Positions 24,189-30,710 of a stretch of DNA of 64,000 nucleotides are shown here, in pieces. The notes under the pieces were generated by a model that worked only from the letters and a program-made list of their open reading frames with translations, was not told the origin of the DNA and ran no database searches. The translations under genes were made by a program, and so were the position numbers. The first letter of the stretch is position 1. Every line of letters starts with the position of its first letter. The stretch lies in assembly GCF_013378055.1 (NCBI RefSeq), contig NZ_CP051130.1:992001-1056000 (forward strand), read 5' to 3'. This stretch comes from Parasphingopyxis sp. CP4 (lineage in GTDB: Bacteria > Pseudomonadota > Alphaproteobacteria > Sphingomonadales > Sphingomonadaceae).

Positions 24189-25205
24189 ATGAATCCGGAC
24201 ACGATCCCACAGAATCGGCCACTTACGGACAGTTTTGGCCGACATGTCAGCTATTTGCGCATATCGGTGACCGATCGCTGCGACCTAAGGTGCCGCTATT
24301 GCATGTCCGAGAAGATGCAGTTCCTGCCGCGGAGCGAGATTCTGTCATTCGAAGAGATTGACCAGATCGCGACTGCGTTCATCGATCGTGGAGTCCGCAA
24401 GATCCGCCTTTCGGGCGGCGAACCGCTGGTTCGCAGAGGCGTTCTCGACTTGGTAGATATGCTGGGACGCCATCTCGACAGTGGCAATCTCGACGAACTG
24501 ACGATGACAACAAACGCGTCGCGCTTGGCAGAATTCGCTGAGCGATTGGTGGATGCCGGTGTTAGGCGCGTCAATGTGAGTCTCGATACTCTTGATTCCG
24601 AAACCTTTCGCTACATCACGCGCTGGGGCGACCTCGACAAAACTTTGCAGGGCATAGCCGCCGCAAAATCGGCTGGCCTGAAGGTGAAGATCAATATGGT
24701 CGGCTTGAAAGGCCTGAACGACGACCAGATTGTCCCAATGATGCGCTGGTGCGCCGATCAAGGCCACGACCTGACGCTGATCGAAACAATGCCGCTAGGT
24801 CAGATCGACGATGATCGGCAAGATCGGTATCTCCCGCTTGATAGTGTGCAGCGTCAGCTAGAAAATCAATTCTCGCTCAACCCTCTGGCCGAACGGACCG
24901 GCGGACCGGCCCGTTATTGGCAGGTTGAGCAACTCGGTTTGAAACTGGGCCTTATCACGCCCTTGACGAATAATTTCTGCGACGGCTGCAATCGCGTTCG
25001 GATCACTGTGTCTGGGAAGATCTATATGTGCCTTGGACATGACGATAATCTCGATTTGCGCACAGCCCTGCGCAAGGGCGGTCGCGAGGCGCTGGACGCA
25101 CTGCTTGATCGCGCGATGCTCATGAAGCCTAAACGTCATGATTTCGCCATTGGAAGCGATTCGAGGCCATCGGTTGAGCGGCATATGAGCGTAACCGGCG
25201 GATGA
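24189..25205 (+). CDS. moaA: GTP 3',8-cyclase MoaA (molybdenum cofactor biosynthesis)
   Basis: The 338-residue radical-SAM enzyme converts GTP into 3',8-cyclo-GTP, the first step of molybdopterin synthesis. The SAM-cluster motif is CDLRCRYCMSE (CxxxCxxC) near residue 32. The C-terminal second [4Fe-4S] cluster motif is FCDGCNRVRITVSGKIYMC. The protein ends in Gly-Gly, the conserved tail needed for catalysis. Its stop overlaps the nadK start by four bases (ATGA). No other moa gene is nearby. Confidence 0.97.
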   Translation: MNPDTIPQNRPLTDSFGRHVSYLRISVTDRCDLRCRYCMSEKMQFLPRSEILSFEEIDQIATAFIDRGVRKIRLSGGEPLVRRGVLDLVDMLGRHLDSGNLDELTMTTNASRLAEFAERLVDAGVRRVNVSLDTLDSETFRYITRWGDLDKTLQGIAAAKSAGLKVKINMVGLKGLNDDQIVPMMRWCADQGHDLTLIETMPLGQIDDDRQDRYLPLDSVQRQLENQFSLNPLAERTGGPARYWQVEQLGLKLGLITPLTNNFCDGCNRVRITVSGKIYMCLGHDDNLDLRTALRKGGREALDALLDRAMLMKPKRHDFAIGSDSRPSVERHMSVTGG

Positions 25206-25978
25206 CGATCGATAGCAAATATGCGCTCGTCGCCTCGCCGACAGAAGAAGCCCAGACCGCAGAAGCCGCCCTGCGCGAACGGCACAGCTTTGCCGACATG
25301 GCTGACGCTGAGGCCGCGATTGTCCTGGGCGGTGACGGTTTCATGCTGCAGACACTGCATCAAATGCTTTCAGAACGTCGGATCCTTCCGGTGTTCGGCA
25401 TGAACCTCGGTACTGTCGGTTTCCTGATGAACGAATGGCGGCCCGATGGGCTCGAAGAGCGATTGTCTAAAGCCAAGTCCTTTACAGTGATGCCATTGCG
25501 AATGGATGCGGTGACGGTAGAGGGTGAAACGGTTTCCAGTCCCGCGATCAACGAAGTCTCGCTGCTCAGGGAAACCCGCCAGACGGCAAAGCTCGAAGTG
25601 ATGGCAGGCGATAATGTCGTCATTGAAGAACTGGTCTGTGACGGCGTGATTGTCGCCACACCGGCCGGATCGACGGCATATAACCTGTCTGCCCGCGGTC
25701 CGATCCTGCCGATGGGATCGAACATGGTGGCGTTGACACCGATCAGCCCGTTTCGTCCGCGGCGCTGGCGAGGCGCCATTTTGCCGGACAATACGCGGAT
25801 CGCTTTTCGCGTGCTCGAACCGCTGAAACGCCCGGTCAGCGCGGTTGCGGACCAACGCGAAGTACGCGATGTGGCGACCGTTGAGGTCCGTTTGGACGCC
25901 AGCCTCGCCCTGACATTAATGTTTGATCCCGAACACGCACTCGACGAACGGATCGCCCGCGAACAATTCATCGTCTGA
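25202..25978 (+). CDS. nadK: NAD kinase
   Basis: The 258-residue enzyme phosphorylates NAD to NADP. It shows the GGDG motif in VLGGDGFMLQTLHQ at about residue 43, then FGMNLGTVGFLMNEW, and the glycine-rich TPAGSTAYNLSARGPILP. The family length of about 255-260 residues for alphaproteobacteria fits. Translation is coupled to moaA by the four-base overlap. tRNA-Asn follows 85 bp downstream. Confidence 0.96.
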   Translation: MTIDSKYALVASPTEEAQTAEAALRERHSFADMADAEAAIVLGGDGFMLQTLHQMLSERRILPVFGMNLGTVGFLMNEWRPDGLEERLSKAKSFTVMPLRMDAVTVEGETVSSPAINEVSLLRETRQTAKLEVMAGDNVVIEELVCDGVIVATPAGSTAYNLSARGPILPMGSNMVALTPISPFRPRRWRGAILPDNTRIAFRVLEPLKRPVSAVADQREVRDVATVEVRLDASLALTLMFDPEHALDERIAREQFIV

Positions 25979-26146: not shown

Positions 26147-27925
26147 TTACAGATCGAGATTACGCCGGCTGAGCTTGTACATCGCAAGCGTGCCATAATT
26201 CTTTGCGAGCTGTACCCGGCCAACATAGTGCGTTCCAAATGGCCGATCCGACTCCAACGATAATATCGCTGCAAATGCTTCGGTCGCATAGACTTCGCCG
26301 GTCGGCGTTACCGGTTCGATCCGGGCAGTTCGCGTAACCTCCGTGCCAAAGAATGTCGTCCGCATCATTACTGCATCATGGCCGCGATAGATCGGACCGT
26401 GATGGACCCCGATACGCATCCCACAATTCCCGCCGGCACATTCCTGCAACAGGTCGGGAATTTCGGCAAACTGAGTTTGTAGTTTCAGGACGATTTCAGC
26501 CGCATCTTTTGGTGTCGAAACAACGGCGTAAAGCGCATCGCCCCAGCTGTTACGGTAGAGAATCTTATCACCATATTCGTCTAGCACTTTGCCCGCCCGT
26601 CCAAAGATATCGCGCGCAAACAGCGGCAGGGCCGCTTCCGACAGTTTCGAGAAACCGGCAAAGTCCGCAAAGATCATCGAATGTGCGACGCGCGTAACCC
26701 CTTCAGGCATTGAGATTTCTGGCGGCCGATCAAGATTGCGATCGATCTCACTTGGATCAATGATCCTGCTTTCATGGCCGAGACTGTTCCACGTCGAAAC
26801 GTCGCTATTGGTGCCGACAGGCAGCGCGTTGTCTTCAGTCTGAGCAATCGCTAGCTGCACGGCGCTTGTCCGCAAATGCCTGGCCCGCATCCGTGCAAGG
26901 CCCATTGCAACGGCCGAGCCATAGCTGAACATATTGGGGTCACCTATATAGCTCATATCAGTCGCAAAGCTGACGCTGGTCGCCCGCTCCATGCATTTCT
27001 CAAATCGGGGCACCCAGTCTTCGCCACCTGGGCGAACAGATTGAGTGATGAAATCCTCGCGCTCAAATGGCAGGACGACGTGCAGCTCTAACCCGCGCCG
27101 GATTACGGCTTCTGCAACCAATATGTCAGCACCGCAGGCAAGAGCGCCATAGGCCGTATCCGGTTCAAGCTCATCCAACGCCGCATCTATTTGGGCCGTC
27201 AAAGCCTCCTCGGCTTTAAGGTCGGCACGAAACATATGGCCGGTGAAAACCAATACCGGCGAGGGGCGGAGCACCTCGATTATCGGTGCAATAATTTCTG
27301 CCATGTCCGGCACAATTTTTGCGATCAACATCATTTGCCGGAATGTCGACGCCTTGGATCCCACACTCGCATCTGACCAGCGCACCGCCGCCGATATTGC
27401 ATCCAACGCATCCTCACCACGGCCGAGCAATATATTGGCTTCAGCCGCCGTCGCGGTGGCGTAGAATCCCGTCGGTTTTGCTACTGCAGGATCGTCGAGG
27501 ATTTTCTCGGCCAGCTCTTCAGCCGATACCCGATCTCCGGCGAGAAGCGCCGTCGTGGCGGCATTGATGCCGGTAAAATAGCTTTCGCGATTTTCGTAAA
27601 CTTCGCGATAAGCACGGCTTGCCTCAGCAAACAACTCCGCCTGATCTCTGGCTTTTGCTGTTTCAGCCAGATCTTTCTTAAGGCGTCCCAAAAGCGCCAG
27701 AATATCGTCATCATCGATATCGCCAAGCCCCGCCTTGTCATAATAATCCAGCGCCATATTCGTGTCGCCCATACGCGCAAGGGCGAGCGTCGCGATATAG
27801 GCAAGGCGTGGCCTTTGCTGGCCCTCCGCCTCGGCGGAAATGGCGATATCATATGCCTCGAGATTATCGCCGCGCGACAGCGCGTCGTCCGCAAGAACGA
27901 CCGGATCGGCGGCCGTCGTCATCAT
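26147..27925 (-). CDS. TPR + SLOG-like + class III adenylate/guanylate cyclase fusion protein
   Basis: The 592-residue soluble protein has three parts. Residues 1-215 are helical TPR-like repeats of the TRAFs-binding/TPR-S type. Residues 222-355 look like a Rossmannoid SLOG nucleotide-sensor fold, with VLVFTGHMFRA, ACGADILVAEAVIRRGLELHVVLPF and a terminal FSYGSAVAMGLA helix. Residues of about 410-592 form a class III cyclase domain. The metal-binding Asp421 (IFADFAGFSK) and Asp463 (SWGDALYA) are present. The purine-selecting Lys is replaced by Asn459, and the transition-state Asn by Thr531 (EVTRTARIE, Arg kept). The start is the ATG at 27925 or the next codon, 37 bp after the secA stop. It is probably co-transcribed with secA. 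The product nucleotide is uncertain. Confidence 0.8.
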   Translation of the reverse strand: MMTTAADPVVLADDALSRGDNLEAYDIAISAEAEGQQRPRLAYIATLALARMGDTNMALDYYDKAGLGDIDDDDILALLGRLKKDLAETAKARDQAELFAEASRAYREVYENRESYFTGINAATTALLAGDRVSAEELAEKILDDPAVAKPTGFYATATAAEANILLGRGEDALDAISAAVRWSDASVGSKASTFRQMMLIAKIVPDMAEIIAPIIEVLRPSPVLVFTGHMFRADLKAEEALTAQIDAALDELEPDTAYGALACGADILVAEAVIRRGLELHVVLPFEREDFITQSVRPGGEDWVPRFEKCMERATSVSFATDMSYIGDPNMFSYGSAVAMGLARMRARHLRTSAVQLAIAQTEDNALPVGTNSDVSTWNSLGHESRIIDPSEIDRNLDRPPEISMPEGVTRVAHSMIFADFAGFSKLSEAALPLFARDIFGRAGKVLDEYGDKILYRNSWGDALYAVVSTPKDAAEIVLKLQTQFAEIPDLLQECAGGNCGMRIGVHHGPIYRGHDAVMMRTTFFGTEVTRTARIEPVTPTGEVYATEAFAAILSLESDRPFGTHYVGRVQLAKNYGTLAMYKLSRRNLDL

Positions 27926-27962: not shown

Positions 27963-30710
27963 CTATTTGAGCGCTCCGTGACAATGTTTGTATTTGCGTC
28001 CCGAGCCACATGGGCACGGCGCATTGCGGCTAACTTTGCCTTTCCAATCCTCAGGATTGCCGGCAGCTAGCTCGTCCAAGCGTGGAGCGCCTGTTTGGCG
28101 TGGCGGTAGTTTGGATGTCACCAATCCCAAATCGCCCCCATCGATGTCAGCACTGTTATCTTCACCTGTCAGCGGATCGATGTGGGTGGTGATGAAGTCT
28201 GGCAGATCCGGCAATGGCGGCGGTTCGGCGGGTGTAAACCGCGCGAATGCCAAAGTCTTGGTCACCTCCTCGCGAATATTCACCAGCATCTGCTGGAACA
28301 TCATGAAGGCTTCGCGCTTATACTCGTCAATCGGTTTCTTCTGCGCATAGGACCGCAGGTTCACGACCTGGCGAAGCGCATCCAGAGTGGAGAGATGTTC
28401 TTTCCACTGGATATCGAGATTCTGCAGCAGGATGCTCTTTTCAACCTCAACCCAGTCAGGAGCCGGAATGTCCTTGGACTTATCGTCGACCTGACGGTCG
28501 GTGAGTTCTAACAGCCGCTCTTCAAGAAGATCGGGAGCCACTTCCTCTTCGCGCATCCAATCGTCGAACGGCGGTTGCATTCCCAGAAGATCATCAACCG
28601 TCTTCTTCAGGCCCTCTACGTCCCATTGCTCAGGATAGGTGCCATGCGGGCAGTGATCGGCCACAATGCCATTCACTGTCTCCTGACGCATATCGACAAC
28701 GATATCATCAACATCCTCGGCATCCATGATGTCACCACGCTGCTGATAAATGACCTTGCGCTGGTCATTCATCACGTCATCATATTCGACGACCTGTTTG
28801 CGGATATCATAGTTGCGCGCTTCGACTTTTTTCTGCGCGGTCTCGATCGCCTTGGCTACCCACGGGCTAACAATCGCCTCGCCCTCTTCGAGATTGCTGC
28901 GAACCATTTTGGCAAACATTGTCTGCGGGCCGAAGATACGCAGCAGGTCATCATCGAGTGAAAGATAGAAACGCGACAGACCTGGGTCACCCTGTCGTCC
29001 CGAGCGACCACGGAGCTGGTTGTCGATCCGGCGGCTCTCATGGCGTTCGGTCGCGAGAACAAACAGGCCGCCAGCGGCTTTCACCCGCTCTTTCTCTTCG
29101 CTCACTTCTTTGGTGATGCGCTCAATCGCAGCGTCGCGCTCCGACCCCTCTTCCATATCGGAAAGTTCGTCTTCAATCCGGAATTCAACATTACCGCCAA
29201 GCTGAATATCGGTGCCACGACCCGCCATATTTGTCGCGATAGTGACCGCACCGGTGCGTCCGGCTTGCGCAACAATATGGGCTTCGCGCTCATGATGTCG
29301 TGCATTAAGAACGGCGTGCTCAACCTTCTCTTTATTCAGAAACTCCGACAAGAGCTCGGATTTTTCGATTGAAACCGTACCGACCAGAACCGGCTGTCCG
29401 CGTTCAGCCGCCTCGCCAATAGCCTTGGCAATTGCCGCAAACTTATCCATCTCATCTTTGTAGAATTCGTCGGTATCGTCGATGCGCTGGATCGGGACAT
29501 TGGTCGGGATCGTCGTCACATTCATTTGATAGATATCGAAAAACTCCGGCGCTTCGGTCAGCGCGGTACCGGTCATACCAGCGAGTTTGGGATACATCCG
29601 GAAATAGTTCTGGAAGGTGATTGACGCCAAAGTCTGGTTTTCCGGCTTGATCGGCACGCCTTCTTTGGCTTCAACAGCTTGGTGGAGACCATCTGACCAG
29701 CGTCGTCCGTCCATCATGCGGCCGGTAAACTCGTCGATGATTACGATCTCATCATTCTTGACGAGATACTCCTTGTCGCGCTTCTGCAGCGTGTTGGCGC
29801 GGAGAGCCTGTTGCAAATGGTGAACGACGAGCGTGTTCTCATAATCATAGAGATTGGCACCTTCGAGCAGTCCCGCCTCTTCAAGCAGTCGCTCGGCTTT
29901 TTCAGTACCGTCTTCGGTGAGGGTTACAGCACGCTGCTTTTCATCGAGCTCATAATCGTCTTCGACGAGCTTCTTCACGACAGCGTCAACGCCGATATAC
30001 AGCTCAGATTTATCTTCGGTCGGACCAGAGATGATGAGCGGTGTCCGCGCCTCATCGATCAAGATAGAATCCACCTCATCGACGATCGAGAAATTGAACG
30101 GGCGGTGGACCATCTGCGTGCGCGAATATTTCATGTTATCGCGCAGATAATCGAAACCATATTCGTTGTTCGTGCCGTAAGTGATGTCCGCTGCATAGGC
30201 AGCACGGCGCTCTTCTTCCGGCAAGTTCGGGACGATCACGCCAACTTCCATGCCGAGGAAATTATAGACCTGTCCCATCCATTCCGCGTCGCGGCGAGCC
30301 AGATAGTCGTTGACCGTGACGACATGAACGCCCTTGCCTTCCAAGGCGTTCAGATAGCAGGGCAGCGTCGCGACGAGCGTTTTACCCTCGCCAGTTGCCA
30401 TCTCTGCAATCTCGCCACGGTGGAGCACAATTCCACCCAGCATCTGCACATCATAGTGCCGCTGGCCGAGTGTGCGTACGGCTGCTTCGCGCACGGTTGC
30501 AAAGGCCTCGGGTAGGATATCCTCAAGCGTCGCACCGGCGGCAAGGAGATCCTTCAATTTTGGCGTTTGGGCCTTGAGTTGATCATCGTTGAGAGCCTGA
30601 ATCTCGGGCTCTAGCGCATTGATCTGCGCGACGATCTTTTCGAGCTTTTTGATGTACCGATCATTGCTCGATCCGAATATCGATTTGGCAATACCGCCAA
30701 ACATGGGCAT
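27963..30710 (-). CDS. secA: Protein translocase ATPase SecA
   Basis: The 915-residue motor drives preproteins through SecYEG using ATP. It has Walker A in [14 protein letters not shown], the DEVD box in [20 protein letters not shown], the second nucleotide-binding fold with [18 protein letters not shown], and the C-terminal zinc-binding tail [17 protein letters not shown] that contacts SecB. Length and order are normal. It is divergent from argJ across 141 bp. A cyclase fusion gene follows 37 bp downstream on the same strand. Confidence 0.98.

What the first reader, a model, noticed from the sequence alone, without database searches (positions are those of the whole stretch)
26147..27925. 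TPR-SLOG-cyclase fusion with altered cyclase active-site residues, behind secA
The protein joins a TRAFs-binding/TPR-S type N-terminus, a SLOG-like nucleotide-sensor fold and a class III cyclase. Both metal Asp are kept, but the purine-selecting Lys is Asn459 and the transition-state Asn is Thr531, with the following Arg kept. TPR-S and SLOG domains occur in nucleotide-centred signalling and conflict systems. The protein may make an unusual cyclic nucleotide, or sense one nucleotide and make another, and its position directly after secA is odd.
Basis: partly seen in the sequence, partly recalled or inferred. Interest (0 to 1): 0.65.

Follow-up and report, generated by a model that had tools for sequence, protein, structure and literature searches.

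The report
Orphan TIR-linked TPR-SLOG-cyclase sensor enzyme
A marine bacterium carries, just behind secA, a real three-part protein (repeat scaffold, nucleotide-sensor fold, cyclic-nucleotide-making enzyme) whose relatives in other bacteria mostly sit next to a TIR gene, which points to a relay from an NAD-derived alarm signal to a cyclic nucleotide, with the TIR partner no longer next door in this genus.

Summary
The minus strand at 26147-27925 encodes a 592-aa TPR-S + SLOG + class III cyclase fusion. Modelled alone, residues 215-398 match B. subtilis YpsA (Z 18.1, 2.5 A, 154 residues) and carry the YpsA-clade GxD motif. Metal Asp421/Asp463 and Arg535 are kept; the base-selecting Lys/Glu is Asn459, the transition-state Asn is Thr531. 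These are family traits, not quirks: N-x-W-G-D is nearly invariant in about 95 homologs and selection on the cyclase is strongly purifying, so it is most likely an active enzyme of unknown substrate. The main new result is context. Of 57 non-genus homologs with adequate flanks, 43 have a TIR gene nearby (under 1% expected). Eleven further loci have TIR upstream, some a pNTSase1 gene between, ten a convergent CRP-type gene; seven of them have a degenerate cyclase. In Parasphingopyxis the gene is fixed behind secA without TIR, nested inside the TIR-linked radiation. Best reading: a Thoeris-like relay (TIR product, SLOG, cyclase, cNMP receptor) whose TIR link was lost here. No function was tested; such conflict systems are already predicted in the literature.

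The parts
26147..27925 (-). TPR-S/SLOG/class III cyclase protein, 592 aa (P0001)
   Evidence: full-length model pLDDT 90.1
27269..27904 (-). all-helical TPR/TPR-S scaffold, residues 8-219 (Pfam TPR-S 36-124)
26732..27265 (-). YpsA-clade SLOG domain, residues 221-398
27125..27133 (-). G265-A-D267, the GxD/E motif predicted to bind ligand in YpsA-clade SLOG domains
   Evidence: 97-98 of 98 homologs; motif described in PMC6459960
26156..26707 (-). class III nucleotide cyclase domain, residues 407-590
26663..26665 (-). metal Asp421
   Evidence: D in 93 of 94 homologs with a residue here
26549..26551 (-). Asn459 at the base-selecting Lys/Glu position (N-x-W-G-D)
   Evidence: N in 92 of 97; invariant in 33
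26537..26539 (-). metal Asp463
26333..26335 (-). Thr531 at the transition-state Asn position (family: S 52, T 26, A 9, N 5)
26321..26323 (-). Arg535, transition-state Arg
   Evidence: R in 93 of 97
27963..30710 (-). secA, upstream on the same strand, 37-nt gap, no terminator-like site between on this strand
   Evidence: gaps 22-49 nt in genus orthologs L021, L023, L024, L025

Best explanation
It is a soluble sensor-enzyme. The SLOG domain binds a nucleotide-type ligand, most likely an ADP-ribose or cyclic ADP-ribose-like product of a TIR NADase. The TPR-S scaffold relays this, perhaps by dimerisation. The class III cyclase domains pair and turn an NTP into a cyclic mononucleotide, which a CRP/FNR-type (cNMP-binding) regulator reads. 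In most relatives the TIR gene is beside it. In Parasphingopyxis the gene was fixed behind secA, away from any TIR gene, so a TIR partner would have to act in trans (the genome has TIR proteins of the same type). Shown here: the domain folds (by prediction), the conserved active-site and ligand-motif residues, purifying selection, the TIR/CRP/pNTSase1 gene linkage in relatives, and the genus-specific secA synteny. Inferred: ligand, activation, product, receptor, and any role in defence.
For: Folds. SLOG GxD motif. Catalytic D/D/R kept in about 93 homologs. dN/dS about 0.05-0.11 in the cyclase (dS near saturation). TIR neighbour in 43 of 57 named non-genus homologs with at least 2.5 kb on both sides, versus about 107 TIR_2 hits in about 185 Mb of 60 relatives, i.e. 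about 0.008 expected per 14 kb. Among the relatives, 12 of the 13 non-genus members that cover the TPR-S/SLOG part have a TIR gene upstream on the same strand (the exception is G027). TIR types, positions and orientations differ; the tree needs 7-14 changes of the label. CRP-type gene convergent next door in ten loci, L103-L112 except L102 counted once in L039, i.e. L103-L112, Pfam-confirmed in two. pNTSase1 (PF20301): all 6 hits in 60 genomes sit between the TIR and this gene. Own genome: 11 TIR_2 hits, at least four matching the profile of linked TIRC-type TIRs (E 9e-43 to 5e-52; one compared directly, 50% identity over 117 residues to the linked TIR of L031) and 7 cNMP-binding domain hits. 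Precedent: a TIR product binds SLOG in Thoeris (PMC9503650).
Against: In the window genome no TIR or CRP gene is linked; 14 of 57 other homologs also lack a nearby TIR. Fixed, syntenic presence in the genus is unlike a typical defence gene. One clade has lost the metal Asp yet keeps TIR and CRP neighbours, so cyclase activity is dispensable there. No CRP-type gene is next door in most of the closer relatives. No ligand, product or phenotype was tested. Gene order shows association, not direction of signalling, and the SLOG motif does not identify the ligand.
Confidence: 0.5

Rival explanations
1. Ordinary regulatory adenylate (or guanylate) cyclase: the N/T substitutions are tolerated variants, the product is cAMP or cGMP, and the SLOG/TPR part senses a housekeeping metabolite; the TIR link in relatives no longer matters in this genus, where the protein has been domesticated.
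For: Fixed single-copy gene behind secA in the genus under strong purifying selection. Rv1900c shows that the canonical Asn is dispensable (PMC4886424). Seven cNMP-binding domain hits in the genome.
Against: TIR linkage dominates in relatives and the genus clade is nested among them. Asn459 is nearly invariant rather than drifting, which suggests selected specificity. The organism already has three other class III cyclases that by motif inspection keep Lys at this position.
Confidence: 0.3
2. A cyclase of non-standard base specificity (for example pyrimidine, Pycsar-like) driven by an NAD-derived signal.
For: The base-selecting position is neither Lys nor Glu; the positions at metal Asp minus 4 and minus 2, which are Arg and Gln in the CTP-specific EaPycC, are nearly invariant Asn and Trp here. 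12 of 33 members touch the PADLOC PycC model weakly (best 1.6e-4).
Against: The PycC match is very weak and absent for the full-length protein. N/W matches none of the specificity sets given for BcPycC, EaPycC or AnPycC. No PycTIR/PycTM gene is linked here.
Confidence: 0.13
3. Catalytically dead nucleotide-binding protein; the cyclase domain serves only as a dimerising or sensing module.
For: A sister clade has lost the metal Asp (L101, L103, L107-L111).
Against: Both Asp, Arg535 and the N-x-W-G-D motif are kept in about 93 homologs, including all genus orthologs whose cyclase domain is held; the cyclase is the most constrained domain.
Confidence: 0.07

Closest known systems
Thoeris (ThsB TIR + ThsA SLOG effector)
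   Same: TIR gene beside a gene with a YpsA-like SLOG sensor (in relatives); most linked TIRs scanned match Pfam ThsB_TIR as well as TIR_2
   Different: The output domain is a cyclase, not sirtuin/TM; a TPR-S scaffold is present; many partner TIRs are longer proteins with TPRs; in the window no TIR is linked
TPR-S / nucleotide-centric conflict systems (Burroughs and Aravind; Pfam TPR-S and pNTSase1)
   Same: TPR-S, SLOG, TIR and pNTSase1 parts
   Different: Whether this exact fusion was described could not be checked (the papers are not held); the window copy is a core gene without linked partners
Pycsar PycC
   Same: Class III fold with an altered base pocket; TIR proteins take part in the signalling
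   Different: Different specificity residues, no PycTIR/PycTM pair, only weak profile match
Rv1900c mycobacterial adenylyl cyclase
   Same: Class III enzyme without the canonical transition-state Asn (His); close fold (Z 20.5)
   Different: No TPR-S or SLOG domain; makes cAMP (from memory)

Membership tests
Class III nucleotide cyclase | cyclase fold | tested here: met
   PF00211 above cut-off; Z about 20 to sGC, CyaB, Rv1900c
Class III nucleotide cyclase | two metal Asp and transition-state Arg | tested here: met
   D421, D463, R535
Class III nucleotide cyclase | canonical base-selecting Lys/Glu and transition-state Asn | tested here: not met
   N459 and T531; a variable trait within the class, so the class call rests on fold and metal site and not on these residues
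SLOG superfamily, YpsA clade | Rossmannoid SLOG fold | tested here: met
   YpsA Z 18.1, rmsd 2.5, 154 aligned
SLOG superfamily, YpsA clade | GxD/E ligand motif | tested here: met
   G265-A-D267, 97-98 of 98 (motif per PMC6459960)
TPR-S (PF20308) | match above Pfam gathering score | tested here: met
   41.7 vs 27.6 bits
Thoeris | adjacent TIR (ThsB) gene | tested here: not met
   none near the gene in the window genome; present in most relatives
Thoeris | ThsA architecture: SLOG plus sirtuin/TM effector | tested here: not met
   SLOG is fused to a cyclase
Thoeris | SLOG binds a cADPR isomer | not testable with these tools
   needs biochemistry
Pycsar PycC | PycC profile match | tested here: not met
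   none for the full protein, E 0.019 for its cyclase domain, best 1.6e-4 among 33 members
Pycsar PycC | adjacent cNMP-gated effector (PycTIR/PycTM) | tested here: not met
   neighbours are secA and a convergent NAD-kinase-like gene; the TIRs scanned in relatives show no cNMP-binding domain
Pycsar PycC | makes cCMP or cUMP | not testable with these tools
   needs enzyme assay

The most novel reading that the evidence does not exclude
A two-messenger relay in one protein: an NAD-derived TIR signal switches on a class III cyclase with a new base pocket (Asn/Trp) that makes a cyclic nucleotide other than cAMP or cGMP for a CRP-type receptor, and one genus has turned this conflict system into a core, secA-linked gene.
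Probability: 0.12. Interest if true: 0.85.

Novelty: new variant of a known kind. Interest (0 to 1): 0.5.

Why it matters
It makes a concrete, testable case for TIR and cNMP signalling being wired in series: SLOG input, cyclase output, CRP reader. It gives a large family with a nearly invariant non-canonical cyclase pocket whose substrate cannot be inferred from sequence, plus a natural contrast set: intact and dead cyclases, TIR-linked and orphan copies.

Tried and rejected
Plus-strand reading of the interval: stops in frame, rejected. Pycsar membership: rejected on profile and neighbours. Mobile-element origin: no phage match, only 2 near-full-length plasmid matches at 28% identity. Functional link with secA: considered and rejected, since the adjacency was found only in Parasphingopyxis. 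Pfam on the SLOG segment alone gave nothing useful, and a profile of 40 homologs found LOG in the PDB only at E 0.7; structure was needed. ThsA did not appear among the listed PDB matches of the SLOG model, which is no evidence against. Prior-art papers (Burroughs 2015; Burroughs and Aravind 2020) could not be read (for the latter), nor the Rv1900c structure paper. A first automated ORF extraction mis-handled minus-strand loci and was replaced. One alignment call failed on wrong coordinates and was redone.

Full report
WHAT IS THERE. The interval 26147-27925 holds one gene on the minus strand, 592 aa, ATG at 27925, 37 nt behind the secA stop. No terminator-like site is found on that strand between them, so co-transcription with secA is possible but not shown. 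Relatives named by public records place the genome in or next to Parasphingopyxis (Sphingomonadales).

DOMAINS. Pfam finds TPR-S at 36-124 and Guanylate_cyc at 416-584. The full-length AlphaFold2 model on 11 homologs has mean pLDDT 90. The region between has no Pfam match of note, so residues 215-398 were modelled alone with 40 homologs (pLDDT 94.5). The best structural match is B. subtilis YpsA (Z 18.1, 2.5 A over 154 residues), followed at Z 10-12 by DprA, LOG and the TRPM2 N-terminal SLOG domain. The YpsA-clade GxD/E motif, predicted to bind ligand (PMC6459960), is G265-A-D267, kept in 97-98 of 98 homologs. The SLOG assignment is therefore solid.

ACTIVE SITE. Profile alignment to solved cyclases is gapless around both key motifs. 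Asp421, Asp463 and Arg535 are kept. Asn459 takes the place of the base-selecting Lys (AC) or Glu (GC), and Thr531 the place of the transition-state Asn. Across 100 loci N459-x-W461-G-D463 is almost invariant (92 N, 92 W, 93 D), whereas position 531 is S 52, T 26, A 9, N 5 and position 524 (the second base-selecting site) is mostly T, N or S. The change is thus a trait of a whole family. Loss of the Asn does not rule out catalysis: Rv1900c has His there (PMC4886424). From memory, Rv1900c also has Asn at the Lys position; this was not checked here. EaPycC uses Arg and Gln at the positions that are Asn459 and Trp461 here (metal Asp minus 4 and minus 2; numbering), so the pocket matches neither AC, GC nor EaPycC. 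In the genus the cyclase domain is the most constrained part (dN/dS about 0.05-0.11, dS near saturation).

FAMILY. At least 404 stretches in genome contigs encode a relative; the best 80 are mostly Alphaproteobacteria, with a few Gammaproteobacteria and other phyla. In the window's own taxonomic family, 76 of 298 genomes have a strong SLOG-profile match (E below 1e-30, counted by hand). In the genus every genome at least 90% complete has it.

CONTEXT. The neighbourhood is the most informative result. Of 57 named homologs outside the genus with at least 2.5 kb on both sides, 43 have a TIR-domain gene in the fetched flank of up to about 6 kb. The genome-wide TIR_2 density in 60 relatives is about 0.58 per Mb, so under 1% would be expected by chance. 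TIR genes of three sequence types lie upstream or downstream and on either strand; homologs are not independent, but the tree requires 7-14 changes of the label. Among the unnamed relatives, 12 of 13 non-genus members covering the TPR-S/SLOG part have a TIR gene upstream on the same strand; one of these, L102, is the same locus as the named L039. In the eleven others (L101, L103-L112), ten (all but L101, whose flank is short) also have a convergent CRP-type gene next door (cNMP_binding plus HTH_Crp_2 confirmed by Pfam in two). A pNTSase1 gene (PF20301) lies between TIR and the cyclase gene in all six pNTSase1-bearing genomes of 60. Seven of these loci (L101, L103, L107-L111) form one clade with a degenerate cyclase domain that has lost the metal Asp.

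THE WINDOW COPY. The six genus rows of the tree form one clade (support 100), behind secA (gaps 22-49 nt in the four measured), with no TIR or CRP nearby, nested within the TIR-linked radiation (the rooting is by midpoint, so loss rather than primary absence is inferred). The genome has only this one TPR-S protein, four class III cyclase hits (the other three show K at the base-selecting position by motif inspection), seven cNMP-binding domain hits and eleven TIR_2 hits. At least four of the TIRs score strongly against the TIRC profile built from linked TIRs (E 9e-43 to 5e-52), and the one compared directly is 50% identical over 117 residues to the TIR linked in L031. A partner in trans is possible but not shown.

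MECHANISM. Most likely: TIR product, then SLOG, then TPR-S relay, then cyclase dimer, then cNMP, then CRP-type regulator. The first step is modelled on Thoeris, where a TIR product binds the SLOG of ThsA (PMC9503650). The order of steps is inference from domain content and gene order. A simpler rival is a housekeeping AC/GC domesticated in this genus.

NOVELTY. SLOG, TIR and cNMP cyclases as parts of nucleotide-centred conflict systems are established predictions (PMC7159879, PMC9503650, PMC6459960). I recall that Burroughs and Aravind (2020) defined TPR-S as a sensor of NAD-derived signals; that paper is not held, so whether this exact fusion was listed is open. I file it as a new variant of a known kind.

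Noticed in passing
L101, L103, L107-L111 (relatives in the same family or order): TPR-S/SLOG proteins of about 475-555 aa with a degenerate cyclase domain lacking the metal Asp, still beside TIR genes and, in six of the seven, CRP-type genes; a single clade.
   Followed up: partly
L101, L103, L108 and genomes G051, G039, G011: A pNTSase1 (predicted novel nucleotide synthetase) gene sits exactly between the TIR and the TPR-S/SLOG gene; all six hits in 60 genomes are at this place.
   Followed up: partly
L121 and L122 (own genome, C1:1603000-1607000 and 2474500-2478500): Two tandem pairs of TIR proteins related to the TIRs linked to this cyclase in L030/L031/L073; the genome has 11 TIR_2 hits, many for 3 Mb.
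   Followed up: partly
window 25202-25978 (+): NAD-kinase-like gene convergent with the cyclase gene; identified by reading the sequence only, found beside it in four of six genus loci.
   Followed up: no
L034, L036, L043: Serine/threonine kinase gene on the opposite strand next to the TIR gene beside the cyclase homolog; the L036 TIR protein seems to carry a C-terminal FHA-like stretch (by reading only).
   Followed up: no
G110, G109, G137 and about 20 other family genomes: A second group of mostly 570-740 aa proteins matches the later part of the SLOG profile weakly (E 1e-9 to 1e-4); identity not determined.
   Followed up: no
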